From NCBI GenBank assembly GCA_003990745.1, contig RBNI01001575.1, positions 1 through 21,819 on the forward strand: a stretch of 21,819 nucleotides of DNA. Reading direction: 5' to 3'. Made by a program: the position numbers and the translations under genes. Below, in pieces: positions 3-21,819 of this stretch (positions within the stretch are counted from its first letter, which is position 1; every line of letters starts with the position of its first letter). The notes beneath the pieces are model-generated. The model saw only the letters and a program-made list of their open reading frames with translations, did not search any database and was not told the DNA's origin. Origin of the DNA: Jimgerdemannia flammicorona (taxonomy: Eukaryota > Mucoromycota > Endogonomycetes > Endogonales > Endogonaceae).

Positions 3-677
3 CACAAAGAAATCATCTGCCGATTCAAAACCCCAGTACAAGTCACCACAGATAGAGGAACAGAATTCATGAACCAGTTCTTTGAGATCCTCTACAAGAA
101 ATACAGAATCCAGCATATTCGGACCACGGCATACCATCCTCAAGGAAATGGACAAGCAGAAAGAACCAACAAAACACTCAAGAATGTTATTGCCAAGATC
201 TATGATAACTACGAAAATTGGGATCACTATCTGCCAATAGCATTATCTGCTCTTAGGGATATTCGATCACAAAGTACCCACTTCACCCCTTGGGAAATGC
301 TGTTCGGAGAAGAAAGTTCTCAAGAAACCTTATTGTCCAATGGAGATGCTGTCTGGAAATGCGTGGATACAGAGATACGGAAACTACACCAAATCAGGAA
401 GAAGGCTGAAGATTATATCATTAAGGCGCAGACACTTCAAAGGAACAATGCAGAAAAAACCCACAAGCCCTTGGAGATTATCAAGATAGGAGACAAAGTC
501 CTAGTGTATTGGAATATGGTGGAAGCTTCATGGTCACGAAAACTGGAGCCCAAGTGGGAAGGACCTCACCTGGTGCAAGATATAAAAGGGACTACCTTTT
601 GGCTATGAAAAACTTCAGGCACAATCATCTCCACTACTATCCACCGAAACTAACTCAAGAAGTATCATGGCCAATAA
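3..677 (+). pseudogene. Integrase, C-terminal two thirds (Ty3/gypsy pol)
   Basis: The frame is open from the window edge. It shows the second catalytic Asp in TTDRGTEF (codon 51-53) and the catalytic Glu in GNGQAERTN (codon 159-161). They are separated by 35 residues, the D-35-E spacing of retroviral-type integrases. The first Asp and the HHCC zinc domain lie off the left edge. Downstream are the YHPQGNGQ segment and a C-terminal region ending in a KLEPKWEGP motif typical of gypsy integrases. In-frame stops at 606-608 (TGA) and 651-653 (TAA) interrupt the last twenty residues. Gypsy-B has Arg codons at both equivalent places, so I read these as mutations and the natural end as the TAA at 675-677. 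The family joins cDNA ends to host DNA in the nucleus. Confidence 0.9.
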
Positions 678-1128
678 CCGAAGCACTGAAATAGCATTCA
701 AGATCACTAGTGCTGCCCAAAGAGCCATTGAGAGACAATGGCATACTACTGAACCCCCGACCATAGAAGAATGTTATGACAGTATCCAAAGTATTGTCCA
801 GACCCATCTCTCTCGAATTTCACACTTCAAGGCCTACCAACATAGAATGGAGTTCCAAGAGTACTTCAAGCTCGGACAGATACTTAACCAGAATGAGGAA
901 ATGACCAAAGAAGATTGGATTGCGGAATGTCAGCTCTCTTATTCACAGATCACCATTGCCAAGAGAATTCATAAATTGTTTCGAGATGACGAATCAGCAC
1001 TAGCCCATATCCGAGGAATAACCCCTACAGACTTCGAGCGAGTTAGGTAACATCATTGGGAAACTGTGATACAACAAATCGCACAGTACAAGACCATACA
1101 AACCGTTGAAGCCTGGGAGTTTGAATAG
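667..1128 (+). pseudogene. Accessory ORF between integrase and 3' LTR (unknown function)
   Basis: An ATG at 667 overlaps the last codons of integrase in another frame. It opens a 127-codon frame ending in TAA at 1048-1050. The same frame continues to TAG at 1126-1128, and the continuation (HHWETVIQQIAQ) still aligns with the Gypsy-B LTR-encoded ORF, so the TAA is probably a mutated Gln codon and the intact product about 153 residues. The clearest shared segment is IAKRIHKLFR here against IAKKIHQIFR in Gypsy-B, followed by a conserved Asp-Phe pair. I see no signal peptide, membrane segment or known catalytic motif. The position after pol is where env or accessory genes sit in retroviruses, but the sequence does not look like an envelope. 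Function unknown. Confidence 0.7.
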
Positions 1129-1456: not shown

Positions 1457-1630
1457 CCTCAGATTGAAATAGTTTAAAGCAAAGAGAAAGCAAAGGAACT
1501 AGTAAGCCTGTGGGCAGATACACTTTGAACTCACCCACCCCTGCATACCGAGGACTCCGCGGAGTCAAAGAAGATCAAGAATTCAAGATACAGAAATCCG
1601 ACATACTTATAAGGTTAAGCATCCTCTACA

Positions 1631-2047
1631 TTACAGTACATATAATTCAGTAATAGAAATGAGATTTCTTTGATAGATATAGTATCCTTTATAGTTCAGA
1701 AAAGTCTTGGCTTTATAGTAGCAATTATTTGAGAGTTTGTTCAGGAAGTATTCAGTTATAGTCTCAATAGATTCTTGGGTATATTTCTCATAAAAGTAGC
1801 TGTAAACTAATTTGTTGAAATCTTCCTTAAGTTTGAGAGTATAGGGGACTTCTTTTTTTAAGAGTGAGAAAAGTATTAAATACTTCTTAGATAGTTTCAT
1901 TGTTGAGTTTATCAAACTCCTCTTGGCTGATATAGATTTTAGTCTACTTAGTAATGATTCTATTGGCTTCTTCAGCTTGAGTCTGAAGAGTATCCAGGAT
2001 AAAGGTTTATCGTAATTATTACCAACAATGTTAGTAATATTGATCAA
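1631..2047 (-). pseudogene. 138-codon ORF in the left palindrome arm, possible start of Gypsy-C gag
   Basis: This frame is open for 138 codons and is rich in Lys, Tyr, Leu and Ile. The right arm has the same sequence (about 2940-3345, + strand) but with several stops and frameshifts. Shared protein-level stretches include LKEDFNKLV and NNCYYKAKTF. In the right arm the frame leads into Pro/Lys-rich sequence and then gag-like sequence, so it may be the N-terminal part of gag or a leader ORF of Gypsy-C. The stop at 1633-1631 lies at the Gypsy-A insertion point, so the protein is truncated there. I recognise no domain. Confidence 0.4.
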
Positions 2048-2417
2048 TTCTAATTATCTATAGTAGATTCTTTGAAGGAAGATTGCTTGTAGGTGAAGAG
2101 AAACCATCTACTACTATCAAATTATAATAAAACTATATATCAATAAAATTAATATATTATGGATAGTTAATGGTAACTATTAGCTCTAAATTCTAGATTT
2201 TTGAGGAAGTACTAAGTTTCAGTTGCCTAATATAGCAGAGTCCAAGTATCACTTTCAGTTCTAATACTAGTAGAAATAGCTGTACTTGTATTCTAAGTTG
2301 ATCAGACTCAGAATTATTAACAAGTCAGATCTGAAGAATTTCTATAATAAGAATACTGCTTTATTTTTATATTTAGAGAAAGTAGAGCTGAGGTTATAAT
2401 ATACTCAGTATAGAGAG

Positions 2418-2425
2418 TATTTATA
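2418..2425 (-). promoter_or_regulatory. TATA box in the left palindrome arm, pointing left
   Basis: TATAAATA read on the - strand, followed by the same CTCTCTATACTGAG sequence as in the right arm. It is the mirror copy of the box at 2567-2576 and probably a decayed LTR promoter. Confidence 0.4.
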
Positions 2426-2566
2426 CATATTTGAGGCTATGACTAAATATAGTATACTGGGTATATCTATATATAATTATACTATTTTGAGTAACTATGA
2501 CTAGTAGTTATAGTTATTCAAAGTAATATAACTATATAGATATACTCAATACTTAGTCTTCAAACA

Positions 2567-2576
2567 TATATAAATA
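2567..2576 (+). promoter_or_regulatory. TATA box in the right palindrome arm, pointing right
   Basis: TATATAAATA followed by CTCTCTATACTGAG and, further on, a weakly Gypsy-A-like stretch. By analogy with the other two gypsy LTRs this would be the core promoter of the Gypsy-C 5' LTR. The LTR boundaries themselves are not recognisable. Confidence 0.4.
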
Positions 2577-3643
2577 CTCTCTATACTGAGTATGTTGTAA
2601 TCTTAGCTTTACTTTTCTCATATATAAGAATAAAAGTAGTATTCTTATTACAAACTCCCAGATCTGACTTATTAATAATTCTAAGCCTGATTAACTTAGA
2701 ATATAAGCATGGCCATCTCTATCTATACAAGAATCTAAAAGTAATATTTAGACTCTTAATCAAAACTCAGCACTTCCTCAAGAACTCTAAACTTAGAACT
2801 GATGGTTACTATTGATTATCTATAATATATAAATTCTATCAGTATATAGTTTTATTATAATTAAGTATCAGTGGATAATTATTTCTTATTTATAAGCAAC
2901 TTTCTTCAAGAATCTACTACAAATTATCAGAACTAGTCAATATTACTAATATTATCAGTGATAGTCAAGATGAATCTTCACCCTAGATACTCTTCAGACT
3001 CAAGTAGAAGAATCTAATAGAATTATTACTAAGTAGACCAAACCCTACACTAGCTAAGAGAAGTTTGACAAACTTGATAATAAAACTATCTAAGAAGTAT
3101 TCTCATACTCAATAAAGAAGTTCTCTATACTCCTAAACTTAAAGAGGATTTTAACAAACTACTTGGCAGCTACTTCTATGAGAAATGTATTTAAGAATAT
3201 ATTAAGGCTACAACTAAATACTTTTTGAACCATCTCCCAAACAATTGCTACTACAAAGCTAAGACCTTTTTGAACTATAAAGGATATTACTCCTATCAAA
3301 AGAAATTCTACTTCTATTATTGAATTCTTTGTACATAAGTAAGAATAATCCAGTAACAAGAACTACAAGTCACCAGACCCAGTGAAGCCCCCACTACATC
3401 ATTCAGACCTAGGAAAATAATCAAAAAAACACCCAAACCAGTTGTTAGTGGCCCCAGTACTATTATAGAACCACTACCAAGAATGTCAAGCCTACCAAAG
3501 ATTACAGCAGATTAAACAATTACTTCATCAAAACCACCAGCTATAGACTCACTCATCTCAGCAATATTATAGAAAAATTAAGTCCAAACTACAATTAACA
3601 CACTATAACAATAGAAAAAGATATAACCCAATCATTTTACCAA

Positions 3644-4620
3644 ATGGAAAACAGAGATAGCAGAATGATATTAGTAGATAATAAGATAGTAATATTGGCT
3701 GATTGAGTAGTCATACTTACTCAAGTTCTTTATCTCAGTATTGAAATAAATAAGCTCACAAAAGGACTCTGCTTCACTCTATTTGAAGACAAAGTAGACT
3801 AAGTAATAACATTTATAGAACAAGTTGATACAAATTACTATACTTATAGATAAAACAATAACTGAAGTCTAGATAGTATCCTTAATAACAATATATACTA
3901 TGAGATTGAAGATCTCTATATAACAGTAGACTCATAAGTAGAAAAGATTGCCACACACTTTATAGATACAGTAGTTTAGTAGTGGCACAACTTACCAGTA
4001 TACTCTCTTATCTAAGAAATCTATACTGAAGTTGTTACAAGTAACAGAGATAATAATCACTCTGACTATGAAGTCTATTTAGTTACTATAGACCTAAAGA
4101 AGCTAATTATTCAGCAGTTCTGAAGCTCTATCTATATTGCTGAAGCTAGAGCCAAAATTAAGAATTTATAATTTTATAATAATAGAAAAGAAGATCTTAA
4201 AGCATTTGATACAAGATTAGAAACCCTTCTGAATACTATTAGAGCAGAATATAGCTAGTGAGAGTAGACTATAAATAGAACCCAAGCTACCTATTTCTTT
4301 GACACTATCTCTGAATAGCTATTAGAAAAAATCTATAAATAAGGATGACCCTATAATTACCTATATGAGTAATAGTGCTTAGGATAAGCTGTTACTTAAG
4401 TATATACTATCCTTATAGCTTAAAGGTCAAAAGATAATAGAACTAACAATAAAGGAGATAAACAATACTAATTGAGAAGAAGTATGAACTTCAGAATGAG
4501 TCCTTAAGACCACAAGGAGAATTTAAGAACCTGTCTGATAAGGAAATAGAAGAACTTATGAAGAAGAGAGCATATTTCTACTATAAAAAGAGAAGACATA
4601 TATCATGCAAATATCCTGAC
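3644..4620 (+). pseudogene. Gypsy-C gag remnant with destroyed CCHC zinc knuckle
   Basis: A decayed coding region with many stops and at least one frame change (frame of ATG 3644 and of the segment near 4202, then another frame by 4561). A segment at about 4202-4255 (FDTRLETLLNTIRAEY) resembles the helical capsid region of gypsy Gag proteins, although this alone is weak. The end is clearer: codons 4570-4626 give AYFYYKKRRHISCKY. This fits a C-x2-C-x4-H-x4-C knuckle in which all three Cys have become Tyr, the Gly before His has become Arg, and an Arg has become Cys. Each is a single G-to-A or C-to-T change. Gag coats and packages the element RNA. Upstream, about 3371-3560 translates to a Pro/Lys-rich stretch that may be its N-terminal linker. 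Confidence 0.65.
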
Positions 4621-4689
4621 AAGAAGATCAATATCAACAAAGGACTATCCTCCTCACACACTGTTACTTTGATAAGAGATGACTTAAAA

Positions 4690-5118
4690 GAAACTACCAA
4701 GAAAATCAGAGTTAAGAGATTTCACATTATTGTAAAAATTTCAGATAAAGTATATGAATCTGATGCTAGCTATGACCTCTACTCTAGCATAAAAGTAACC
4801 ATTGAACTAGGCAAGTAAGCAACTATTAATATAGGTGTTGAAATGAAAGTTCCTAAAGAAATCTATATCTATCTTACAGAAAAGTGTAGTTTGGCTAAAG
4901 AAGAGAGACTCTGTATAGCTAAAGAAGTTGTAGACTAAGGATTTAAAGATAAGATTAAGGTCCTATTACATAATATTAGACAAAAGACCATCAAAATTAC
5001 ATATGAAAAATGAATTGCTCAAGCTATCATTGAAGTAATATATAATGACCTTGAAGTAGAAGAAATAAAGAAACTGTCACTCTCTAATAGAGAAAAAAAA
5101 CCCTTTAGATCAATGGAG
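4690..5118 (+). pseudogene. Gypsy-C dUTPase domain, all five motifs recognisable
   Basis: Trimeric dUTPases hydrolyse dUTP to dUMP and keep uracil out of new DNA. Reading one frame through three in-frame stops, the five motifs appear in order: motif 1 ASYDLYS (4765-4785), motif 2 KCSLA (4882-4896), motif 3 VVD.GFKDKIKVLLHN (4927-4974), motif 4 IAQAII (5014-5031) and motif 5 NREKKPFRSM (5086-5115). The Asp of motif 1 and the Gln of motif 4 survive, while glycines of motifs 1 and 5 have become Ser or Arg. Just upstream, a KRFH..VKI stretch matches the equivalent part of the Gypsy-B dUTPase. The domain directly follows the gag CCHC knuckle and precedes the protease. Gypsy-B has the opposite order. 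Confidence 0.9.
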
Positions 5119-5198
5119 AAGTACTCTGATAAAGCCAAAGAGAAAATCAAGGTACAGAAGATTGTCCACATTGAAGAATCTCAAGACTGAGACCAGAA

Positions 5199-5310
5199 AT
5201 GCTACTAGTATATTGCCAACAGATATATCTCTACAAGACAATGTCCATATGAAATTAAGATATACTGTTTCAAGTATATAAGAGAATATATCATATGTAT
5301 TCTTGAATCC
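5199..5310 (+). pseudogene. Cys/His-rich module between dUTPase and protease (Gypsy-C)
   Basis: In the dUTPase frame, codons 5239-5310 give QCPYEIKIYCFKYIREYIIC. The Gypsy-B counterpart reads RCPHGTKMYCSEHLNDCWSC. Cys, Pro, Lys and Tyr positions coincide, and the metal-type residues lost here (His to Tyr twice, Cys to Tyr) are again C-to-T or G-to-A changes. The spacing suggests a small zinc-binding module, although I cannot name a family. It sits between protease and dUTPase in both elements despite their swapped order. Confidence 0.65.
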
Positions 5311-5439
5311 AAGAAGTATAAGCCAATGATTCCAGAATTATAAGATGAAGAAATCAAGAACATCAATGATAAAGATAGAGAAGTACAAGATTAAAAAGAA
5401 GAAACTACTTTAGAAACCATCACCACCTAGTAAGAAACT

Positions 5440-5760
5440 AATATAGAATACATCTGCCTTCTAAGAAAAATTGAAGGAAACCCTATTGAAGTTCTTATTG
5501 ATAGTAGAGTAAGCAAATACTATCTTGATTAAGAAACTACTGACAAAATCCATCTCAAGATGCAAAGAAATTCAGAAGGAAGCATTGCTACTTTTGAAAA
5601 TAGAATAATACAGAAACTCTCTAAATATATAAGAATACACTTCTATAATTCAGAACTATACTATAAGGTAAACCTTCTACATTACACATCTCTCTAGACA
5701 CAACCTCATTCTTAGAAAATCCTGACTTATATAGGAGAACCCCTATATCAATTAGTAAAC
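5440..5760 (+). pseudogene. Gypsy-C aspartic protease
   Basis: The retropepsin signature appears as VLIDSRVSKYYLD (5491-5532), where the active-site Asp-Ser-Gly has become Asp-Ser-Arg through GGA to AGA (5506-5508). About 60 codons further, after a frame change near 5690, sequence resembling the C-terminal ILGNPWL-type motif appears as FLENPDLY. The size and the spacing between the two motifs fit a gypsy protease, which cleaves the Gag-Pol polyprotein. The frame contains TAA and TAG stops. Identification rests on two motifs in a badly decayed sequence. Confidence 0.75.
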
Positions 5761-5890
5761 CAATATAATCTCTCTGAGAGATATCAGGTTACAACTCAAG
5801 CATACTATGAAGAAAACAAAACTCAGATGTGATGTTATTTCTGCTATTCAGATGAAGAAACTGATTCAGAAATCAGACCAGCATATCTAC

Positions 5891-5894
5891 ATAT
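5891..5894. repeat. Target-site duplication of Gypsy-B, left copy (ATAT)
   Basis: ATAT abuts the first base of the left LTR and recurs at 14709-14712 right after the right LTR. Gypsy-C reads across the two flanks without loss. Four bases of AT-rich sequence can match by chance, so the support comes from the LTR ends and the continuity of Gypsy-C. Confidence 0.7.
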
Positions 5895-6100
5895 TGTTAT
5901 GTAGTAGTCGCTGAGTTCTTCAAATAAGCCAGATTCTCTTCAAGATGTATCTCTTAGACTAACTCAAGTTTGTTATAAGCAAGTTCTTATTGGAGTGCCT
6001 TCCCAAGGTCTTATAGTCCTCAAACTTCGTATCTTTAACTATCTTGTTATCTCTTAGATTGTTTACAAGAGATTGTGTATATTGTACTGAGAAAACTGAC

Positions 6101-6133
6101 TTTATTTCAGAGAAAATAAGAGGGATATTTATA
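6101..6133 (-). promoter_or_regulatory. TATA box and polyadenylation signal of the left Gypsy-B LTR
   Basis: On the - strand TATAAATA lies at 6133-6126 and AATAAA at 6106-6101, separated by 19 bases. The right LTR has the same arrangement. In this 3' LTR the AATAAA is the likely signal that ends the genomic RNA. Confidence 0.65.
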
Positions 6134-6250
6134 CAAAATATAATTCAATGGTTGCTAAGATATAAAGCTAAATATAAATTCCAATAACTAAAACTACTAA
6201 GTTCCAGGGTCAGTATTGATGGTTGTATAGGTTCAGGATACTGGTATAAT

Positions 6251-6355
6251 TCAGTGTCACATCAGAATACTGGTGCTGAAACAATTTCGCGTCACCTCAG
6301 AATGCCAGTGCTGGCATTATCCAGTGTTACATCAAAATACTGGTGCTGGCATTAT
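6251..6355 (-). repeat. Three tandem 35-bp repeats in U3 (left LTR)
   Basis: Units at 6251-6285, 6286-6320 and 6321-6355 share the core CATCAGAATACTGGTGCTG with a few substitutions. Partial units flank them on both sides. The array lies between the end of the LTR ORF and the TATA box, a typical place for enhancer repeats. No spacers are present. Confidence 0.8.
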
Positions 6356-6372
6356 TCAGTATAATAAAGAAC

Positions 6373-7324
6373 TTAGAGCAGAAAGTTCAGGATCATGGGG
6401 GCTTCATCCTCATCATCACTGAAGGAGATGAGATCCATAAATTCGTCATTATATAGGTCACATATCTTATATATGTTGCACATTTCACATGCTTTGATGT
6501 CATGTGGGATGATGTCATCGCCGATGATATTATCATGTTCAGCAGTGGGGAAATCTGGGGCTCTCCAATCTATGAGGTTCTCTTCCACAAAATAAGGGAC
6601 AAATGTGGGGTCTTGGGGAGGTCTAACCTAGATGCTTGGGCCTTGGAATACTGAGATCAACCCTTGTAGGAATTAGTCTGGGTTGTCCTGGAGGATGGGG
6701 TGCCAGAAGTCTTCTACTTCATCACTATTGAGAGTGATAGTGGACTGGGCTTCTATAGCCACCCTGGCTTTTAGTACATTGATATGGCAGGATGACAGGT
6801 CTCTGAAATCTGAGACTCTAATATACTCTAAGTTGGAGATTGACCATGGTGTATGCCTGAAGATCTGATAGATCTTTTTAGCTGTCCTTGCCTCATGTAT
6901 ATTCATGGGAGTGGTATCTTGTAGCTCTTGAGAGCTGGCCTGTGGGAACTCCCGGCAGAGGAGGTTTCTTGTTTCATACTCCTGCCACATTTGGAGGCAT
7001 TTGGTAGCAATGGTGATTCTTGTTTCCATTTTACAGCGGTAGAGAATAAAGTGTTAGAGATCTGCAGTATCCAGGTTAATACTAGGAGTCCTTCTTGAGC
7101 GGGTCCTCATGGCTCTTCTGATGTCTTAGAACATCCTTTCCTTGACTGAGATGCCTTAGTGGTTCCTTGACCTTGAGGTTTGGCAAGCAGTGGGCATTTT
7201 ATTTGTGGTAAGTCTTTGGGCTATTTTGGGATTGGTGGGTCTTGTTGGTTGCTGCTACTGTGGTTCCTTAATCCTTCTTTTATATTCCTCAGTGCTGTGG
7301 TCACAATGACTCACAGTTGGTCAT
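6373..7324 (-). pseudogene. LTR-encoded ORF, left copy (about 319 codons when intact; unknown function)
   Basis: The ATG at 7324-7322 opens a frame that shifts by an 8-bp deletion near 7290 and then runs in one frame to TAA at 6375-6373. Stops at 6675-6673 and about 30 codons later are TAA and TAG where Gln is expected; the right copy keeps Gln at the second. Adding back the 8 bp gives 960 nt, exactly the length obtained from the right LTR. The product has a KRRIKEL basic/coiled N-terminal part, a middle with IAKKI..IFR (related to the Gypsy-A ORF), a Cys-bearing CEMCNIYKICDLY stretch, and an acidic end SFSDDEDEAPMILNFLL. No signal peptide or membrane span is evident. Because U3 of the 3' LTR lies within the genomic RNA, expression like nef or sag is possible; that is inference. 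Confidence 0.75.
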
Positions 7325-7644
7325 CATTGCTCATCTTGTATGCTATATGATCTCCTTGTGCTCTGATCTGGTGGCTTGTGAGGAAAGGCTGTCTTCTGTA
7401 CTGATGTTATCATTCTGAGGTCACCATTACATCTTCCTCCTGAATAAGGATCTTCCTGAGTGTCCTTATTCTTTGGTCCAGTCCTGAAAAATTTGCTGAT
7501 CCCATAACCTCTGGCAAGGGGTTGAAAAGTGGTGTTTATGGGCTGGTGTCTTCTCTTTGTATTTTGGCATGATGGTGAAGAGTCACTCTCTTCATATAGA
7601 GCAAGGGCCTGATTCTGATCTTGATCAATCAGTTGACAGTTCAA
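7324..7644 (-). other. 106-codon open frame crossing the polypurine tract into the LTR (doubtful gene)
   Basis: An open frame starts in the spacer after integrase (7644), passes through the polypurine tract and LTR start, and ends in a TGA overlapping the ATG of the LTR ORF. Upstream the same frame continues after one TGA to an ATG near 7690. The product is rich in Gln, Ser and Pro, with no recognised motif. The overlap of stop and start is suggestive of coupled reading, but only one copy of the spacer exists here, so chance cannot be excluded. Confidence 0.25.
7432..7447 (-). other. Polypurine tract of Gypsy-B
   Basis: On the - strand TTATTCAGGAGGAAGA runs directly into the LTR start TGTAATGG. 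It is nearly identical to the Gypsy-A tract. The spacer from here to the integrase stop (about 7448-7795) holds no recognised domain. Confidence 0.85.
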
Positions 7645-10479: not shown

Positions 10480-11114
10480 ATCTTGGTGGTATCATAGGCT
10501 CCTCTTCTAGTAGATCCAAAGCCTTATTCTCTTCTCTTGGTCTTGATGAGTTCGATGGCTTCAATGATCTTGGGCTTCTTGATTTCATAGATCAGCATCT
10601 GGCCAATCCTGTCATACTTCTTGACTTCGAAGGGGGTGGTGTGGTTGTGATTTCTGACTATGAGGAAGATCTCGCCAGTGTAATCAGAGTCAATTACTCC
10701 TCCTTCAACTGAGATTTCACTTTTGGCCAGACTGCTCCTAGTCTTGATAATTCCAGTATAGTTTTCTGGCAGCTTGACTCCAATTCCAGTGCCAAGTAGG
10801 GTAGTGGTCTGTGGTTCAAGGGTAGTATCTTGAATGCTGGCAAGGTCTATTCCTATGGCTCCTTTGGTCTTGTATTCTGGAATCTTGACTTTGGGGTGAA
10901 ACTTCTTGACCTTGAGGGTGATGTCTGATTCTTGTTCCTCCTCATCATCACTATTAGCCTGAAGCTCTGGGGGCTGGTCATCTTCTTTGGCTTTTCTTTT
11001 TGCTTCAGCAGCTTCTTGCTCATGTTTCTGTTGGCAGATTTTCCTGACTTCGCTGATACAGGACCAGCAGTCATTCAGGTGTTCAGAGCAGTACATCTTA
11101 GTACCATGGGGGCA
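10480..11114 (-). pseudogene. Gypsy-B Cys-rich module plus dUTPase domain
   Basis: The segment starts with a Cys/His-rich module, RCPHGTKMYCSEHLNDCWSC and a further Cys after KI (11114-11034), followed by an acidic linker. The dUTPase then shows motif 1 AIGIDLAS, motif 2 TRSSLAKS, motif 3 GGVIDSDYTGEI, motif 4 YDRIGQMLI and motif 5 RRE.GFGSTRRGAY, the last split by a TAA at 10526-10524. The substrate-pocket and catalytic residues of the trimeric family are in place apart from Ala to Gly in motif 4. It is in frame with protease upstream and RT downstream, so it was part of the polyprotein and not a separate gene. dUTPases occur in several retroviruses and some LTR retrotransposons. Confidence 0.92.
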
Positions 11115-13161: not shown

Positions 13162-13370
13162 AGTTGTTATGTAGTGGTCACTGAGTCCTTCAAATATACC
13201 AGATTCTCTTCAAGATATATCTCTTAGACTAACTCAAGTTTGTTATAAGCAAGTTCTTATTGGAGTGCCTTCCCAAGGTCTTATAGTCCTCAAACTTCTT
13301 ATCTTTAACTGTCTTGTTATCTCTTAGATTGCTTGCAAGGGATTGTATATATTGTACTGAAAAGACTGAC

Positions 13371-13403
13371 TTTATTTCAGAGGAAATAAGAGGGGTATTT
13401 ATA
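13371..13403 (-). promoter_or_regulatory. TATA box and AATAAA of the right (5') Gypsy-B LTR
   Basis: TATAAATA lies at 13403-13396 and AATAAA at 13376-13371 on the - strand, as in the other LTR. In this 5' LTR the TATA box would drive the genomic RNA, starting around 13375. Confidence 0.65.
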
Positions 13404-13520
13404 CAAAATATATTTCAATGGTTGCTAAGATATAAAGCTAAATATAAATTCCAATAACTAAAACTACTAAGTTTCAGAGTTGGTACTGATGGTTGTACAG
13501 ATTCAGGATGCTGGTATAAT

Positions 13521-13625
13521 TCAGTATCACATCAGAATACCGATGCTAGAACAATTTCACATTACCTCAGAATGCCAGTGCTGGCATTATCCAGTGTTAT
13601 ATCAAAATACTGGTGCTGGCATTAT
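13521..13625 (-). repeat. Three tandem 35-bp repeats in U3 (right LTR)
   Basis: Units at 13521-13555, 13556-13590 and 13591-13625 have the same period and phase as in the left LTR, so the array predates the insertion. Confidence 0.8.
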
Positions 13626-13642
13626 TCAGTATAACAAAGAAC

Positions 13643-14601
13643 TTAGAGCAGAAAGTTCAGGATCATGGGGGCTTCATCCTTGTCATCACTGAAGGAGATG
13701 AGATCCATGAATTCATTGTTGTGCAGATTGCACATCTCATATATATCGTACATTTCGCATGCTTCAATGTCATGTGGGATGATGTTATTGCTGATGATAT
13801 TATTACATTTAGAGCAGGGAAATCAGGGGCTCTCCAATCTATGAGATTCTCTTCTACAAAATAAGAGACAAATGTGGAGTCTGGGGGAGGTCTAACCTGG
13901 ATGCTTGGGCCTTGGAATACTGAGATCAACTCTTATAAGAATTGGTCTGAGTTGTTCTGGAGGATGGGGTGCCAGAAGTCTTCTACTTAATCACTATTGA
14001 GAGTGATAGTGGGCTGGACTTCTGTAGCCACTCTGGCTTCTAGTGCATTGATATGGCAGGATGACAGGTCTCTGAAATCTGAGACTCTAATATACTCCAA
14101 GTTAGGGATTGACCATAGTATATGCCTGAAGATCTGATGGATCTTTTTAGCTATCCTTGCCTTGTGTATATCCATGAGAGTGGTATCTTGTAGCTCTTGA
14201 GGGCTGGCCTGTGGGAACTCCCAGCAGAGGAGGTTTTCTATTTCATACTTCTGCCACATTTGGAGGCATTCGGTAGCAATAGTGATCCTTGTTTCTATTT
14301 CACAGTGGTAAAGGATAAAGTGATAGAGATCTGCAGTACCCAGGTTGATACTAGGAGTCCTTCTTGAGCAGGTCCACATGGCTCTTCTGATATCTTGGAA
14401 CATCCTTTCCTCGACTGAGATGCCTTGGTGGTTCCTTGACCTTGAGGTTTGGTGAGCAATGGGTATTTTGTTTGTGATAAGTCTTTGGGCTATTTTGAGA
14501 TTGGTGGGTCTTGTTGGTTGCTGCTACTGCAGTTCCTTAATCCTTCTTTTATATTCCTCAAGATACTTATACTGTGGTCACAATAACTCACAGTTGGTCA
14601 T
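13643..14601 (-). pseudogene. LTR-encoded ORF, right copy (about 319 codons when intact; unknown function)
   Basis: ATG at 14601-14599 opens a frame that is read, through TGA and TAG codons near its start (Arg/Gln expected), to about 13826. There a one-base deletion relative to the left copy shifts the frame. After it the acidic end (EFMDLISFSDD..DEAPMI) leads to TAA at 13645-13643. With the base restored the ORF is 960 nt, the same as the left copy after its own repair. The longest uninterrupted part is 138 codons (14403-13987). An early segment, YKYLEEYKRRIKELQ, could form a coiled coil. The copies confirm each other's frame although each is broken at a different place. Confidence 0.75.
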
Positions 14602-14708
14602 CATTGCTCATCTTATATGCTATATGATCTCCTTGTACTCCAATCTGGTGGCTTGTAAGGAAAGACTGTCTCCTGTGCTGATGTCATCATTCTGAGGTCA
14701 CTGTTACA

Positions 14709-14712
14709 ATAT
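14709..14712. repeat. Target-site duplication of Gypsy-B, right copy (ATAT)
   Basis: Matches 5891-5894 at the other end of the element. Confidence 0.7.
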
Positions 14713-14990
14713 GTATATAGAGTTAAGAAGACCCCAGAAGATAATGATAAAGAGCTCTCTGAACTTCTAAAGGATAAAGATAATAAGGAAGACAATCTCT
14801 AAGAACTTCTCAAGGAATATGAAGATGTTTTTCAAGAATCTCAAGAACTACTACTAGTTTGAGTAGTAGAATATAGTATTGAGACTATTTCTGATTCAAA
14901 CTCACCCTATTATGGAATTTATTAATCAGCCTAATCTGAGCTAGAAACCCTCACTGATATATCAGATTCTAAGAGTATATGCAAGATTAT
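14709..14990 (+). mobile_element. Gypsy-C resumes: start of the RT region
   Basis: After the second ATAT the Gypsy-C pol continues on the + strand. One frame with a few stops gives ELLKEYEDVFQESQ (14803-14844), then VEYSIETISDSNSPYYGIY and SELETL (up to about 14952). These match the conserved entry to gypsy reverse transcriptase: the EYxDVF element, a His-x-Ile-type segment, and the Pro-Tyr run before a Ser-x-x-Glu-Leu. The catalytic RT blocks that should follow are not recognisable, so the element is truncated or too decayed after about 14990. Confidence 0.7.
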
Positions 14991-16060
14991 AGAATAAGCT
15001 ATCAGATTTTAAATTATATTATCTACTATATTTTGTAATATAAAGTAAAATCAACAATATATCCTCATTAACATGTATAGGTGAGCTGGTATAGTGTCTA
15101 AAGAATATATTGCTAACCTTAACAATGTCTTACTCAAAGTTGAACCCTCTAAGCTGAAAGCATATCTTAGATTGAGTTTGACCTAGCTGATCTCTATTAA
15201 TTCTAGAAAGATTTATCACAGATTTTTGAGATATTACTGTAGGATTATCTAAGGTTAGAGATTGCTGATAAAGGATGTCAAATTGTTGAAGAATAGGCTA
15301 AAGAAGGGAAGTTTGCACTTATACATGACAAGAGGTTGTAAAGAGGAGTGACATCATCTTCATGACTGCCATCTCATATTCCTCACACTGATCTTGCTTA
15401 AAGAGATGATACAGCTATATATTCCCTTTACAAATAACAATGTATAGCTGGCTGACACATAAAGTTCTATTTCTGCTATAGCTTTACTATATAATTCTAC
15501 CTAATAAAGTATAAATACCTTCTCATAAATATCAGCTAAGACTTGCATAGCTTGATTTCTAAGTATTCTATACTAGATACAAGAATGACTTCATCTATGG
15601 TAATATCAAGAATGATGTGATTATAGATTGAATCTAAAATTCTTATAGAAATTACAAAAGAATCCAACAGTACTGCTGTGTGAAACTAATCTTATTTGTT
15701 TTTTTTTATTTTCAGATAATTTGACAGAATATTACTCTCCAACTATGGCTGAATCTTAGGTATAAAGTATTGGCTGAATTTCTGAAAAATTGGGAAGTAG
15801 AGTACATAATACTTTGAAATCCTTAGTAGTCAGAATTCAAAACTAAGACTAAATAAATCTGTACTTTAGCTCCTACTGACAATGTCATCAGTCTTACTGC
15901 TAAATTAGAAAATTCTTCAACTATTCTTTCTTAGAATCTTTCTTACTACTCTTTAAAAAATTATCACAAGTTACCAAAATGCTAAATAATTATTTTACTA
16001 AAAGCTACCAAGGAATACCTTTCTCAGCTATCATTCACATTACACACATCTTTACAATAT
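14991..16060. other. AT-rich interval without a recognisable gene
   Basis: No frame is open for more than a few dozen codons on either strand, and stops are dense in all six. CpG is virtually absent, as in Gypsy-C, so this is probably old transposon sequence. Short readable pieces such as NNVLLKVEPSKLKAYL (about 15124-15171) show it was once coding, but I cannot match them to the RT, RNase H or integrase blocks expected next in Gypsy-C. It ends where base composition changes sharply at about 16062. Confidence 0.5.
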
Positions 16061-16076
16061 ACTTTCAAGTCATTTA

Positions 16077-18098
16077 TTGGAGAAAGATACTAAGGCAATA
16101 GTAAATAGCAAGCAATCTGGGGCATGTACTGGGCAGGGCAGCTCTAGTGCATTCGACTGGCAGCAGGTGGGGAGGGGTCCTGGCCTGGCAGAAGGACAAG
16201 GAGGGGGAGGAGGTAGTAGTAGAGGACAGGGGTCTGGGAGGGCGAGCTTTGTGGAGATAGTGAAGTAGAGGCAGCAGACATCTGGGCTGGAGAGATGGCT
16301 GAGGAAAGGCAAGGAGATGGAGAAGATAGCAGTTCACAGGAGAGTAGCTCTTAGTGGTGAGGGCAGTAGAGCTGGGGGAGTAGTGGCTGGGAGGAGTGTG
16401 ATGACTGATAGTGATGGGACTGCCAATCTGGAAAAAAATCCATATGTGACTGCTGATGGTATGGCTGAGCAACTGGGGCTTAGAAGGCAAAGAGATTTGG
16501 CAGATAGTGTGACAGGCCTGGCAGTGGCTCTATTACTCAAGAAATCGATCTTGGCATTTGTGGTGACATTGTGCTTCTAGAGCCTAGCAATGATGGTGAA
16601 AATAGTACTGGAACTTATCACTAAGCAGGTGGCTGGAGCAACATCCATTAAGTTTCTGAAGGAATTGGAGAGAGTGGAGGTGAGCTTTGAGAAGGCCAAG
16701 CCTTTGGAGGAAGCACTGAAGGTTGGATTAATAGTTGGGGAGGTCTGTGTTCCAATAGCACACTGCCTGAAATGGGACCCCAGGGTGGTCCAACTGCTGG
16801 TGAAAGGAGTACCCATAGTGATGGCAGTAGAGATGAGAAGGAGAGTTGAGGAGGTCATAGCAGAGTATAGAGAGGTGGTGGATATCAGATTCAGAGTCTG
16901 GGAAGGGACCTCGCTCAGGACTGAAGATGTGAATGTGAGGATTTGGCTGACAGAGAAAGAAGCTACTAGGAAGGCAAGGGACTGGCCTTCAGGGATGGTC
17001 TGGGGGGCAATCTTGTGCAAGGTGATGAGGGTGAAGGGGAGTGAGGAGGAGGAAGAGGACTTGCTAGAGGTACTGAAAGAGCTGAGTAGAGCAGTGGAGC
17101 AGTGGGTGAAGGCTTGGAAGGCTTTTGTAGAGTCAATACACTTAGAGGTGGTAGATGGGAAGTGGATTGGAGTGAACAAGAAGTAATGGAAAAAAGCTCA
17201 GGGATGTAAGTATCAGAAGAAGCTGCTGGCTAAGATAGAAGGTCAACCACAGAAGGAGATGGGTGAAATGGTGGAAATGGGGGATGCCAAAGTGAGTGTC
17301 TGGGCTGACGAGGATGGTGGGAGTGCAGGAAAGGGGACAGGAGAGGACAGGAAAGCAGCTGGCAATGACCTGTATGCTGATGGCACATTTGAGATCTGGG
17401 AAGAGGACTGGGAGAGATCGCCTACTTCTACTCCTCTTATCAGGCAAGGTCTGGCTTCCCATAGCAGAGTGGGAGAGGATGTATTGATGAAGGGGGCCCA
17501 GTGAGTACAATTTGGAGTTCCTGAGGTGGCCAATAGGGGACAAGTGGTGGCAGTTGGAGAGGAGGAACTGGTGGATATCCTGGAGGTATAGAATGAGTCT
17601 GTGAGTACTGAGGCTGACACCACAATGTTGGATGGTGGGAGACTGGTGACTCCTGGGGAGAAGGAGGTAGAAAACCTACTTTGGATATGCAGGATGATAA
17701 ATAACCTGGCACCTGAAGAGTTGGGGGAGGTGAACTTAAGAGTAATGAGCAATGAGCATTGGGTGTGGATCCTGCAGAGGGATGGTATAGAGTTGGCATT
17801 GAAGGCAGAGATCCTTGCAGTATATCTGGAGAAGGAAGGATATGAGGTAGATAAGGAGCAGGAGGCAGAGCTAGCAGAGGTTACTGGTGAGAGGGCCAAA
17901 TACTATTGGGCCAAGTGACATGGATTGCAGCTCTGGCAGGAGGCCTGTCTGGAGTACCAAGAGGAGTTTGAGGAGAAGGCAGATGGGGAGATGAATGAGC
18001 TATTGGCTGGATTGGAGGCTCAGAGGGCTGAAGAGGCAGAAGTGACTGCAGAACATAATCTGGATTTGGTATAGGAGGAGATGACCATGGAGCAGTAG
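16077..18098 (+). pseudogene. LINE ORF1 (nucleic-acid-binding type protein, decayed)
   Basis: One frame runs about 670 codons with stops at 16266-16268, 16578-16580, 17184-17186, 17502-17504, 17589-17591, 17916-17918 and 18072-18074. The longest clean segment, 16590-17186, is 198 codons. The N-terminal part is Gly/Gln-rich (around 16130-16250), the middle is mixed and amphipathic (MAVEMRRRVEEVIAEYREVV), and the end is strongly acidic and helical (EEFEEKADGEMNELLAG, about 17964-18014), suiting a coiled coil. LINE ORF1 proteins bind the element RNA and form the RNP. I see no CCHC knuckle or RRM signature, so the assignment rests on position and on preservation of one long frame. The start is unknown. 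Confidence 0.65.
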
Positions 18099-18129
18099 GG
18101 AAGGACTTGATAATATACCATATTTCATT

Positions 18130-18900
18130 ATGAATAATATAACCAACATTTTTTCTTTAAATGTGAATGGATTATAGGGTACTTATCAATACAGGAACAT
18201 TTTTACTTAGTTGAAGGGATTGGAGGCTGATCTCTTCCTCTTGCAGGATGTCAGGTGTGAAGATGATTTGGATAGACTGGAATAGATGAAGGAATGTAGA
18301 GGTGAGGCAGTTTGGAAGGGCAAGGTTGGGATTCTGGTACAGAAAGGCAGAGGAGAGATAAGAGATATGCAGAGCTGGGGGGATAGATTGGTCTGGGGTG
18401 AGTGGATACATACAGGATGGGAGCCAGTCATAGTGAGCTCCTGTTACTGCCCCACTGTACCGAGTGAGCATGTGGATTGGGTGAAGGGCCTCCAGGAGAG
18501 TGGAATCCTCACAGAGGCTGGGGTGGATATGCTTGGTGGAGACTTCAATATGGTCCAGAATGTACTGTTGGATAGAAGAGATGAAAGACAGAGAGCTGAG
18601 GGTCAGAGTGGAGGACTGGCAGTATGAGAGGAAGTGGAAAGGCTGAGTGCTCTGGTGTATGTGGGTAGGGAGTACTGGAGGGATAGGAGGGTATACACGT
18701 ATTGAGCAAAGGGCTTAGGGACAAGAATTAATTGGATTCTGATGGCCAGCTACTGGAGCTTGGATGTTTGGAAGACACTGGAGGTGGAATGTCCTTGATC
18801 AGATCATTGAAGGCTTTTAGGACAGGGGCATTTTGGGGGGAGTGGGGATGGGCCTGAACATTGGTGTCTCAATTCCTCTCTATTAGATGATAAGATCTGG
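18130..18900 (+). other. ORF2 domain: apurinic/apyrimidinic-type endonuclease
   Basis: Landmarks of the exonuclease III-like family: SLNVNGL (18154-18174), FLLQDVR (Asp where Glu is usual), GGDFNMV (18535-18555) and a C-terminal SDH triplet (18799-18807), preceded by INWIL. The catalytic His and the Asn of GDFN are still encoded, although stops interrupt the domain. Confidence 0.85.
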
Positions 18901-19499
18901 TGGGATGCATGGGCTGTGGACATTCAACTGAGGGTGGAGTGCTGGAGACAGAAAGGTGCCCCAGTTGGTGTTTGGTGGATGCAGATGAAAGAGATGGCCA
19001 GGACCTACTAGAGTGAGGCTGGTAAGGAGGCTGGGAAACAGAGGAGGTGACAGATCAGATGGGCTTCTAGTAGACTGTCTAGACTTTTAGAGGAGAATTG
19101 GAGATCAATGAGGACAAAAATGGAGGTTGACGAACTACAACAGGTATTGCAGGAGGAGGAAGAGGCAAGGGTGCAGAGTTTGGCAGCATGGCTCTGTTGG
19201 TAGGGTTTGGAAGAAGGAGAGAGACCCTCAAAGTATCTCATGAGAACCCTTCAGGTGAGAAGAGTGCAGCAAAGGTGGGAGGGGGTGCTTGACTCTGATG
19301 GTATACTGGTGCATGATATACAAGACATTCTTGGATCTTTAAAGGAGCATTGGAGTGGATTGTGGAGTGAGGAGGAGGGTGGGGCAGATGCTGATGCCAT
19401 TGACCAAGTATTGGAGGATTGGTACCCCCTATGAGTAGATGGGTTGGGAGACTTAGTGTTGCCAGTACAAGAAGAGAAAATCCACCAGGTTCTTGCCAT

Positions 19500-20730
19500 G
19501 ATAACACTGGGTACAGTACCTGGGGAGGATGGTTTGCCCTAAGACTTCTGGAAGAAGATGGTGAGAGTCTCAAGAGTACTGGGTGAGATGATGGTATTGT
19601 GTGATTTTATTCTACAGACAGGGAGATGGGTGGGGGAACAGGATCTGGGGTTGGTGACATTGCTTTACAAGAACAAAGAAAGACAAGAGGACTGGAAGAA
19701 CTGGAGGCCAATTATGCTGCTGAATATGAACAGAAAGTTGGTTACTAAGGTAGTGGTCGCAAGGCTAAAAAAGGTGGCCTAACAAGTCTTAGGTGTTGAG
19801 CAGAGGGGCTTTGTAAGAGGCTGGCTCATTAGAGATACCACAGCCTGGATATATAGAGTTATTGAAAGGGCACAAGCTAGTAGACTAGATAGACAACTGG
19901 TCTTTTTGGATCAGGAGAAGGCTTATGACTGGGTGAGGTGAGTCTGACTGATAAAAGTATTAGATAAGACTAGGGTTCCACACCAGTTTAGGTCAGAAAT
20001 AGTCAGCCTACTGAAAGAGAGTAGGGCTGTGCTCATATATAATAAACATAGAGGGGTAGCATTCTCCCTAGGTAGGGGGGTGCTCCAGGGGGGCCCACTA
20101 TCTCCCATTCTGTATGCTCTTTCCCTGGAACCCTTAATAGATAGAATCAGGCAGAAGATAGTGGGGCTCTCCATCTTTGACATTGAGTGGAAAGTAGGGG
20201 CCTTGCAGATGACATAGTGGTCAGCCTGGGATCAATTGCTGATGTTGAGGAGCTTAAAGAGACAGTAGAGTGGTATGAGGAGAACTCTGAGGCTAAACTT
20301 AATTGGTATAAGTATAAAACAATAGTGTTAGGCAATAGTCTGATGGGAGGGGAGGTTATTGGAACAATCATCTCTGCTGATGAGGCAGTGCAGTACTTAG
20401 GTATCTATCTGTCAGTTTATAGGTCAGTTCTACTCAGGTTTTGGTGGGAGCAGTGGGTTGGAATCTGGGGGGAGGCCCTGCAGAGTTAGGGGGGTCACCA
20501 ATTGTCTCTGGCAGGGCATGTCTCGATTTTGAATGTCTACTGGCTGCTAAAGTTGTGGTATCTGGCTTATCATCTAGACTTCTCAGTCTGGGTGGTGAAG
20601 AGATTGATGAAGCTGGCCAAGGGGTAGATCTGGGCTGGAAGAAGGAGTCAGATCAGCTAGGAGGTCTTGTTCTTACCAGTAGCAAGTGGTGGACTTGGGC
20701 TGGTTGACTTTCCAAAGAGGCTGCACTGCT
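19500..20730 (+). other. ORF2 domain: LINE reverse transcriptase and thumb
   Basis: Blocks in order: VTLLYKNKERQEDWKNWRPI (19650-19709), LDQEKAYD with catalytic Asp at 19909-19911, GVLQGGPLSPILYALSLEPL (20080-20139), and LADDIVV (20202-20222) in the shifted frame, with Leu where Tyr or Phe is usual. The thumb-like tail has VASGGLGLVDFPKR (about 20679-20720). Confidence 0.92.
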
Positions 20731-21179
20731 TGAGAGCATGGTGGTTGATGAGAGCCATGGAGTTGAGAGGGAGGGATTGGATTCCCCTATTGCAGAAGAT
20801 CTGGGAGATGAGGTCCTCACCAAGAGGTTCGACTGGAGATCTCCTATCTTTGGTTGGCCTTCAGAATACTGAACAATTGCAATACAAAGACTTCTGGTGG
20901 GGGGTAGCAGAGGGGGTACACCACATTGGAATTTGTTGGCAGAGAAATAAAGAGGAGGTGGCTTGGGACCTGGCAATGTGGAGATGGAATTGAGTATTAC
21001 TGAGTGGCATTCCCTTAATCAATTTTGACATTAGTGATGAGATAGAATGCCAAAGAGGACCTGGCCAGGATCTGTGGCCCAGTAGTTGATAAAGAGTAAG
21101 AATCAGTAAAGAGTGGGACTGATATGGTATTTGGGCCTGGAGTGCTGAGGTAAGAAGATAGATACTGCCAAAGTACTAG

Positions 21180-21458
21180 GTGACTTGGTGGCACATGCTG
21201 AGGAGGAATGTAATGCTCAACTACTGCTCAGATCACCTTATCAAGGGAGATTGCTTCAACTGTAAGGAGTACCATAATGTAGGGCAGGAAGGGGGATATG
21301 TGCAGATGTCTGAACATTGGCTAGGAGAGTGTGAGATACTTAGTGACTTTTGGCAGACTATTGGGGATTATTTGGGAGTAGGGTGCAGGAGAGTTGACAT
21401 GTGGGGGCAGTGGGAGGATTTGAGGGATAGACTGGTGGGGGGGGTGGGAAAGGAATAA
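21180..21458 (+). other. ORF2 C-terminal zinc motif region
   Basis: WWHMLRRNV is followed by CFNC (Cys codons 21252-21254 and 21261-21263) and then, 17 residues on, HWLGEC (His 21315-21317, Cys 21330-21332) and DFW. This C-x2-C...H-x4-C arrangement with a following Phe-Trp is the zinc-binding end found in many plant and fungal LINE RTs. Confidence 0.7.
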
Positions 21459-21749
21459 CTCACATTAGGCTGGGCTTTGGCCATTTGGGTGGGGTTGGCC
21501 AGTCACTGGCTATTTGTTTTTGAGAATAAGAGGAGACTGGGCTTGGGGGTCTGGCTGCTGCAGTGGCATAGCCTTATGGAAGACACCTTGATGGGCTGGT
21601 GGCTTGGTTGGTGGTTGCAGGGTGGTCAAAGGTATTGCTTGGTGGAGAAAATCTGTAGGCAGAGTGGAGGGAGGGTTGGAGTAGTGGGTGAGAAGGTAGT
21701 CTTTATTTGGGAGGAGGTGGGGAGAGGTTCTCCTATGGGGATTGGGTAG

Positions 21750-21819
21750 TGGGATGAGATACTGTAAACTTATTAATAGATGGGTAATAAATGGTAGAGT
21801 CTAAGTGACTATAAAAAAA
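21750..21819 (+). other. LINE 3' UTR and A tract
   Basis: About 60 bp after the ORF2 stop the sequence ends in GACTATAAAAAAA at the window edge. An AATAAA is present at 21786-21791. The seven A residues look like the start of the LINE tail; the rest and any target duplication are outside the window. Confidence 0.6.

What the first reader, a model, noticed from the sequence alone, without database searches (positions are those of the whole stretch)
6373..7324. A 319-codon ORF encoded inside the U3 of a gypsy LTR
Both LTRs of Gypsy-B encode the same protein on the - strand. The left copy has an 8-bp deletion and the right copy a different 1-bp deletion. Correcting each gives exactly 960 nt from ATG to TAA in both, and stop codons differ between the copies. 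A frame that long, recoverable from two independently damaged copies, suggests a real gene. Like MMTV sag or lentiviral nef, U3 of the 3' LTR is part of the genomic RNA. The protein has an acidic tail and a Cys cluster but matches no family I know.
Basis: partly seen in the sequence, partly recalled or inferred. Interest (0 to 1): 0.75.

Follow-up and report, generated by a model that had tools for sequence, protein, structure and literature searches.

The report
A gene inside a retrotransposon's LTR
The end repeats of a large family of jumping genes contain a real, selectively maintained protein gene, probably with its own start signal for transcription, so each copy of the repeat may carry a small gene of its own.

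Summary
The frame is real, but not 319 codons. Of 40 LTR copies compared, 12 hold an uninterrupted ORF of 246-286 codons; in the left copy it starts at + 7197. For coding: 28 of 34 distinct indels in the ORF are multiples of three, against 5 of 46 in the rest of the LTR. Third codon positions vary most. Context-corrected omega is 0.63 among intact copies, but 1.07, 2.18 and 1.08 between the two LTRs of one element. Against: transversions alone show no constraint. A diverged sister family (C) also has the ORF in its LTR. Family A has a shorter, probably homologous ORF outside the LTR, between integrase and polypurine tract. TATAAAAG precedes the ORF by 86-87 nt in A (20 of 20) and B (39 of 40), and TATAAAA by 63-69 nt in C (7 of 7), separate from the LTR's own promoter/poly(A) module. 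Best reading: a self-contained accessory gene in U3, transcribed from its own promoter, making a soluble acid-tailed protein of unknown fold that acts in trans. Transcription and function are untested. New variant of a known kind.

The parts
5895..7431 (-). 3' LTR of Gypsy-B (left copy), 1537 bp, TGTAAT...CATAACA; flanked by ATAT (5891-5894 and 14709-14712)
   Evidence: TSD read by eye
13165..14708 (-). 5' LTR of Gypsy-B (right copy), 1544 bp
6373..7197 (-). U3 ORF, left copy: one frame, ATG to TAA, 274 codons plus stop, five internal stops, no frame shift
13643..14466 (-). U3 ORF, right copy: ATA at the start, two internal stops, one frame shift near 13820
7277..7284 (-). TATA box of the U3 gene (TATAAAAG), left LTR
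14546..14553 (-). TATA box of the U3 gene, right LTR
6126..6133 (-). TATA box of the LTR itself (TATAAATA), left LTR; downstream of the ORF
6101..6106 (-). AATAAA, left LTR (probable poly(A) signal)
13396..13403 (-). TATA box of the LTR itself, right LTR
13371..13376 (-). AATAAA, right LTR
6241..6360 (-). 35-bp tandem repeats between the ORF and the LTR's own TATA box (right LTR: 13507-13636)
7432..7441 (-). polypurine tract AGGAGGAAGA
   Evidence: by eye
10524..11096 (-). dUTPase domain of the Gypsy-B polyprotein
   Evidence: PF00692, E 1.1e-25
667..1128 (+). homologous accessory ORF of Gypsy-A (153 codons in intact copies; this copy has an in-frame stop at 1048-1050), between integrase and polypurine tract
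581..588 (+). TATAAAAG 86 nt upstream of the Gypsy-A ORF, lying within integrase codons
1166..1560 (+). start of the Gypsy-A LTR (TGTGATGG...), with TATAAATA at 1425 and AATAAA at 1451; no accessory ORF inside
   Evidence: 1560 is the end of the query used, not the end of the LTR

Best explanation
U3 of Gypsy-B (and of its relative Gypsy-C) contains a complete accessory gene: a TATA box, an ORF of about 272-286 codons, and downstream the LTR's AATAAA as probable poly(A) signal. Shown: the ORF is a protein-coding gene kept by selection in the lineages that transpose, it lies wholly upstream of the LTR's own promoter module, and it forms a cassette with the TATA box. Inferred: the gene is transcribed from its own TATA box as a short mRNA ending at the LTR's AATAAA, from the 3' LTR, the 5' LTR or a solo LTR, without the gag-pol RNA. 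Inferred, least certain: the product is a soluble, mostly helical protein with a basic N-terminal part and an acidic C-terminal tail that acts in trans as a regulator that keeps copies expressed or counters silencing (about 0.3 for that particular role). The gene was once internal or became internal: sister family Gypsy-A has a shorter relative with the same TATA box at the same distance, before the polypurine tract.
For: Open frame of at least 240 codons in 12 of 40 LTR copies; 55 of 142 scored places without a stop. Start ATG kept in 34 of 40, stop TAA in 38 of 40. In-frame stops 77 of 10862 codons, against 394 of 10821 and 891 of 10831 in the other two frames; codon-position differences 0.339/0.214/0.447 in the ORF, 0.332/0.339/0.329 downstream. 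Distinct indels that are multiples of three: ORF 28 of 34, LTR 1-241 1 of 10, LTR 1079-end 4 of 36. Omega with a trinucleotide-context null: mean 0.63 over 66 pairs of intact copies, 0.80 over 378 pairs of damaged copies, 1.07, 2.18 and 1.08 for three LTR pairs of single elements. NG86 dN/dS 0.19-0.42 in five pairs of intact copies. Relatives at 58-90% identity in other sequence sets. Family C ORF 41-49% identical to B in the best stretches, also in an LTR. TATAAAAG upstream of the ORF: A 20 of 20 at 86 nt, B 39 of 40 at 87 (37) or 86 (2) nt; C 7 of 7 TATAAAA at 63-69 nt. In B the integrase codons at the place of A's TATA box do not contain TATAAAAG in 10 of 10 copies where the peptide was found, of 13 examined. 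Separate TATAAATA-AATAAA module: A 12 of 12, B 39 and 38 of 40, C 4 of 7.
Against: Transversions alone give omega 1.20, 0.68, 1.27 and 0.82 in four pairs, no sign of constraint. Shared variants are not poorer in nonsynonymous changes than singletons (108:68 against 72:39). The indel evidence comes almost wholly from the acidic tail: only 2 of the 34 events lie in codons 1-215. The 40 copies were the best matches to a query made of this region, which favours copies whose ORF is little damaged. A/T-only sites mutate less here, so 40 of 40 for the TATA box within B is weak by itself. No transcript, protein or phenotype was seen. No confident fold (pLDDT 38.6 and 49.7).
Confidence: 0.6

Rival explanations
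1. The ORF is a real gene but is expressed as a 3' gene of the full-length RNA (by splicing, readthrough or reinitiation), like retroviral U3 genes; the upstream TATA box is a relic or a chance motif.
For: The ORF lies at the 3' end of the RNA that would start at the LTR's own TATA box. A/T-only motifs are conserved passively here. In Gypsy-A the TATA box lies in integrase codons.
Against: TATAAAAG sits 86 nt upstream in A and 87 nt in B, in quite different surroundings, and B does not keep it in the integrase codons; it is present in all seven C loci read. The chance of the 8-mer in shuffled 120-nt leaders is 0.004-0.007 (single-base shuffles).
Confidence: 0.22
2. The upstream TATA box is the element's main promoter, so the ORF lies in R and is the first cistron of the genomic RNA, ahead of gag.
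For: It is the first TATA box in the LTR, and AATAAA lies near the other end.
Against: The TATAAATA-AATAAA module is shared by A (whose LTR has no ORF and no other match to TATA[AT]A in the stretch scanned), B and C, which points to it as the ancestral LTR promoter. R would have to be over 1 kb.
Confidence: 0.1
3. The ORF codes for protein but serves no function of the element; it is a host or viral gene recently caught in the LTR.
For: No known domain.
Against: Constraint between copies of different elements, and conservation in B and C at 41-49% protein identity, with relatives in other sequence sets. A recent passenger would not be constrained over that span.
Confidence: 0.05
4. No gene: an open frame by chance or by composition, kept open by short age.
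For: Transversions show no constraint.
Against: Multiples-of-three indels, stop depletion against the other frames, third-position excess with a flat control downstream, neutral LTR pairs of single elements.
Confidence: 0.03

Closest known systems
Retroviral genes in U3: MMTV sag and lentiviral nef (recalled, no call)
   Same: A protein gene in U3, present in both LTRs, wholly or largely upstream of the LTR promoter.
   Different: A Ty3/gypsy element of a probable fungus with no envelope gene seen; no sequence match to either was found by Pfam; the ORF has its own TATA box; a probable relative lies outside the LTR in a sister family.
Additional ORFs of LTR retrotransposons (plant aORFs such as those of Grande, RIRE2, Retand; brtn of Botrytis Boty), PMC7264820, passages seen
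   Same: An extra gene besides gag-pol near the 3' end of the element; Gypsy-A's ORF is of this kind.
   Different: Those described there lie in the internal region, and the 3' ones listed are antisense; here the B and C ORFs are sense and inside the LTR.
Fungal Ty3/gypsy elements with a dUTPase domain (Postia, Phanerochaete, Tuber), PMC2864245, passages seen
   Same: dUTPase in the polyprotein.
   Different: The passages seen mention an additional ORF only as a figure label; they do not describe an ORF in the LTR. Whether Gypsy-B belongs to one of those lineages was not tested.

Membership tests
Ty3/gypsy LTR retrotransposon (the element) | LTR pair with target-site duplication, and gag-PR-RT-RH-IN order | tested here: met
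   LTRs and ATAT duplication; CCHC, protease, RT/RNase H and integrase zinc-binding domains in that order on the minus strand; the integrase end seen by eye
U3 accessory gene (MMTV sag / nef-like position) | ORF lies between LTR start and LTR promoter, present in both LTRs | tested here: met
   ORF at LTR 242-1078 and LTR TATA box at 1287 in the reference copy; both LTRs of the window
MMTV sag / lentiviral nef as protein families | sequence or fold homology | tested here: not met
   No Pfam family at E up to 5 for the intact B protein; no useful match to solved structures (best E 0.34, a human DEP-domain protein). Fold not testable: models too poor
Additional ORF of an LTR retrotransposon (internal aORF) | ORF in the internal region between pol and 3' LTR | tested here: not met
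   Not met for B (ORF in the LTR) nor, by alignment ends, for C. Met for Gypsy-A: 7 of 12 LTR loci have the ORF and tract directly before the LTR, 5 have unrelated flanks
Homology of the Gypsy-A ORF and the Gypsy-B U3 ORF | profile similarity above shuffled controls | tested here: met
   hhalign score 39.2, probability 75.8%, against at most 22.3 in 200 column shuffles and 21.5 reversed; modest, about 104 columns at 23% identity
Private promoter of the U3 gene | transcripts start downstream of TATAAAAG | not testable with these tools
   Motif and spacing only
Mu transposase DNA-binding domain (HTH_Tnp_Mu_2) | score above the family cut-off across members | tested here: not met
   20.8 bits against 20.5 in the window's Gypsy-A copy, 17.6 in a second, none in four other A-type proteins

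The most novel reading that the evidence does not exclude
The LTRs of this retrotransposon group are portable genes: each LTR, even a solo one, is a complete transcription unit (promoter, protein gene, poly(A) signal) for a trans-acting factor that serves the whole family, and the cassette can move between the internal region and the LTR, taking its promoter with it.
Probability: 0.4. Interest if true: 0.8.

Novelty: new variant of a known kind. Interest (0 to 1): 0.62.

Why it matters
LTRs are usually treated as regulatory DNA and are masked or annotated as non-coding, so a gene of about 275 codons in an LTR is easily missed. If each LTR is a transcription unit, solo LTRs, the commonest remains of such elements, could go on supplying a helper protein in trans, and any functional one would affect the whole family. 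The A/B/C comparison shows an accessory gene inside the LTR in two families and outside it in a third, with the same TATA box upstream, which makes the move of a gene into an LTR open to study. In nine searches of a library of open papers I found no description of a sense ORF inside a Ty3/gypsy LTR (listings, and passages of four papers); most subscription papers are not in that library.

Tried and rejected
Fold: two structure predictions gave mean pLDDT 38.6 (B) and 49.7 (A), so no fold search was run. Known domains: none for B; the Mu-type HTH match of one A copy did not hold in its relatives. Solved structures: best E 0.34 and 0.07, not used. Origin from the element's own gag-pol: the B and A proteins find only the U3 ORFs and the A ORF in the window below E 0.1; a few 21- to 42-residue stretches at E 0.12-0.72 were not followed. 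Site-frequency test: no difference between shared and single variants. Transversion test: no constraint. Frame between the integrase stop and the polypurine tract in B: no clear coding signal in 13 copies. RNA families and tRNAs in the window: none. Host: not identified; seven requests for an actin match did not complete. Integrase in front of the C LTR was recognised by eye in one locus; a tblastn with a B integrase end did not find it.

Full report
What was checked. Its frames match CCHC, aspartyl protease, dUTPase, reverse transcriptase/RNase H and integrase zinc-binding models. The window lies in an unnamed 134.8-Mb genome in 7754 contigs. I fetched 38 regions and with the two window copies compared 40 LTR copies.

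The ORF. Twelve of the 40 copies carry an ORF of at least 240 codons: ten of 272-286 codons beginning at about LTR position 242, and two that start later, of 246 and 252 codons. In each of the 12 the upstream stretch printed holds at least two stops, so the 319-codon version is not supported. In the left window copy the ORF runs from 7197 to 6373 in one frame with five stops; in the right copy from 14466 with ATA at the start, two stops and one frame shift near 13820. A search with a related protein scored 142 places, 55 of them without a stop (counted by hand; a lower bound).

Is it coding? Across all pairs of the 40 copies, differences fall 0.339/0.214/0.447 on codon positions 1/2/3 in the ORF and 0.332/0.339/0.329 in the LTR downstream; upstream of the ORF they are 0.352/0.270/0.378. 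Stops are 77 of 10862 codons in frame and 394 of 10821 and 891 of 10831 in the other frames. Distinct indels that are multiples of three: 28 of 34 in the ORF, 1 of 10 upstream, 4 of 36 downstream; in the 28 copies without a long ORF, 25 of 30, 1 of 8 and 3 of 29. Of the 34, only 2 lie in codons 1-215, so this evidence is mainly from the acidic tail. With a null that keeps trinucleotide context, omega is 1.07, 2.18 and 1.08 for the two LTRs of three single elements, as expected after insertion, 0.63 on average (0.43-0.99) over 66 pairs of intact copies from different contigs, and 0.80 over 378 pairs of damaged copies. In four pairs of intact copies the same kind of null gave 0.72, 0.45, 0.57 and 0.59, reached by 22, 3, 2 and 4 of 1000 simulations; transitions carry the signal, and transversions alone gave 1.20, 0.68, 1.27 and 0.82, no constraint. 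NG86 dN/dS was 0.19-0.42 in five pairs. A comparison of single and shared variants did not separate (72:39 and 108:68 nonsynonymous to synonymous). Taken together I hold the ORF to be a gene under purifying selection in the transposing lineages, decaying neutrally after insertion.

Where it sits. In the reference copy the ORF occupies LTR 242-1078; TATAAATA lies at 1287 (39 of 40 copies) and AATAAA at 1314 (38 of 40). The ORF is therefore upstream of the LTR promoter, in U3. Between the ORF and that promoter are 35-bp tandem repeats.

Sister families. Gypsy-A, whose 3' end opens the window, has an ORF of 153 codons in intact copies, with at least 150 places in the genome (capped). Of 12 loci with its LTR start, 7 have ORF and polypurine tract directly before TGTGAYGGTC or its close variant and 5 have unrelated flanks, so this ORF is outside the LTR. 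Profile comparison with B gave score 39.2 against at most 22.3 in 200 column shuffles and 21.5 for the reversed profile: significant but modest, about 23% identity over 104 columns. Family C, found with a metagenomic relative, is heavily mutated; its ORF is 41-49% identical to B. Alignments of five C loci with two others begin sharply about 270 nt before the ORF, while one pair of loci runs on upstream, into what looks by eye like an integrase end. That places the C ORF in an LTR too.

A promoter of its own. TATAAAAG lies upstream of the ORF in 39 of 40 B copies, at 87 nt (37) or 86 nt (2); the fortieth has a shorter form. In Gypsy-A it lies at 86 nt in 20 of 20 distinct loci with enough upstream sequence; of 32 loci examined, 2 were duplicates, 5 were cut and 5 had no ORF match; 18 of the 20 have ATG and 2 ATA at the start. 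There it overlaps integrase codons. In B the same integrase peptide, found in 10 of 13 copies, is encoded without TATAAAAG in 10 of 10. C has TATAAAA at 63-69 nt in 7 of 7 loci, 5 of them TATAAAAG. The LTR module TATAAATA-AATAAA is separate: 12 of 12 A LTRs, and 4 of 7 C loci; in the other three it was not found, two of them having little sequence left. The caution is that A/T-only sites mutate less here, so conservation within B alone says little; the spacing shared by A and B in different surroundings says more.

How it probably works. The simplest reading is a gene cassette (TATA box, ORF) with the LTR's AATAAA as terminator, working from any LTR independently of gag-pol RNA. The protein is acidic (pI 4.5-4.6 in three copies), without a membrane segment (highest 19-residue hydropathy 0.43), net +6 in the first 60 and -16 in the last 50 residues of one copy. 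No family, structure or fold could be assigned. A trans-acting regulator or counter-silencing factor is my first guess, an assembly factor the second; neither is tested.

Known parallels. Additional ORFs of LTR retrotransposons are known in the internal region (PMC7264820, passages), including antisense brtn of Boty. dUTPase in fungal gypsy elements is known from Postia, Phanerochaete and Tuber (PMC2864245, passages). Retroviral sag and nef are recalled. Strong CpG depletion of the elements here (observed/expected 0.04-0.16 in Gypsy-B and the non-LTR element) would suit a CpG-methylating host such as the truffle described in PMC4165359 (passages), but the host is not identified.

Noticed in passing
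10524-11096 (-): dUTPase domain between protease and reverse transcriptase in the Gypsy-B polyprotein (PF00692, E 1.1e-25).
   Followed up: partly
1621-5894 and 14709-16050: Flanking DNA almost without CpG (observed/expected 0.01 and 0.00) and with TA/AT of 1.18 and 1.04, unlike the elements themselves; looks like older, heavily mutated repeats.
   Followed up: no
1669-3300: Long inverted repeats (arms of 75-194 nt, 73-83% complementary) around about 2500, perhaps a decayed palindromic or terminal-inverted-repeat element.
   Followed up: no
about 16050-21780 (+): A LINE-like element (reverse transcriptase-like frames seen by eye, A-rich end), CpG observed/expected 0.04.
   Followed up: no
flanks of the LTR copies, e.g. 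L020, L033, L039: Many insertions sit in A/T-rich TATNTA-like sites, which hints at a target preference.
   Followed up: no
L029 LTR 242-1078, C-terminal tail: The acidic tail is preceded by a conserved DLISF and ends in LNFLL or a close variant in most copies and relatives; possible short interaction motifs.
   Followed up: no
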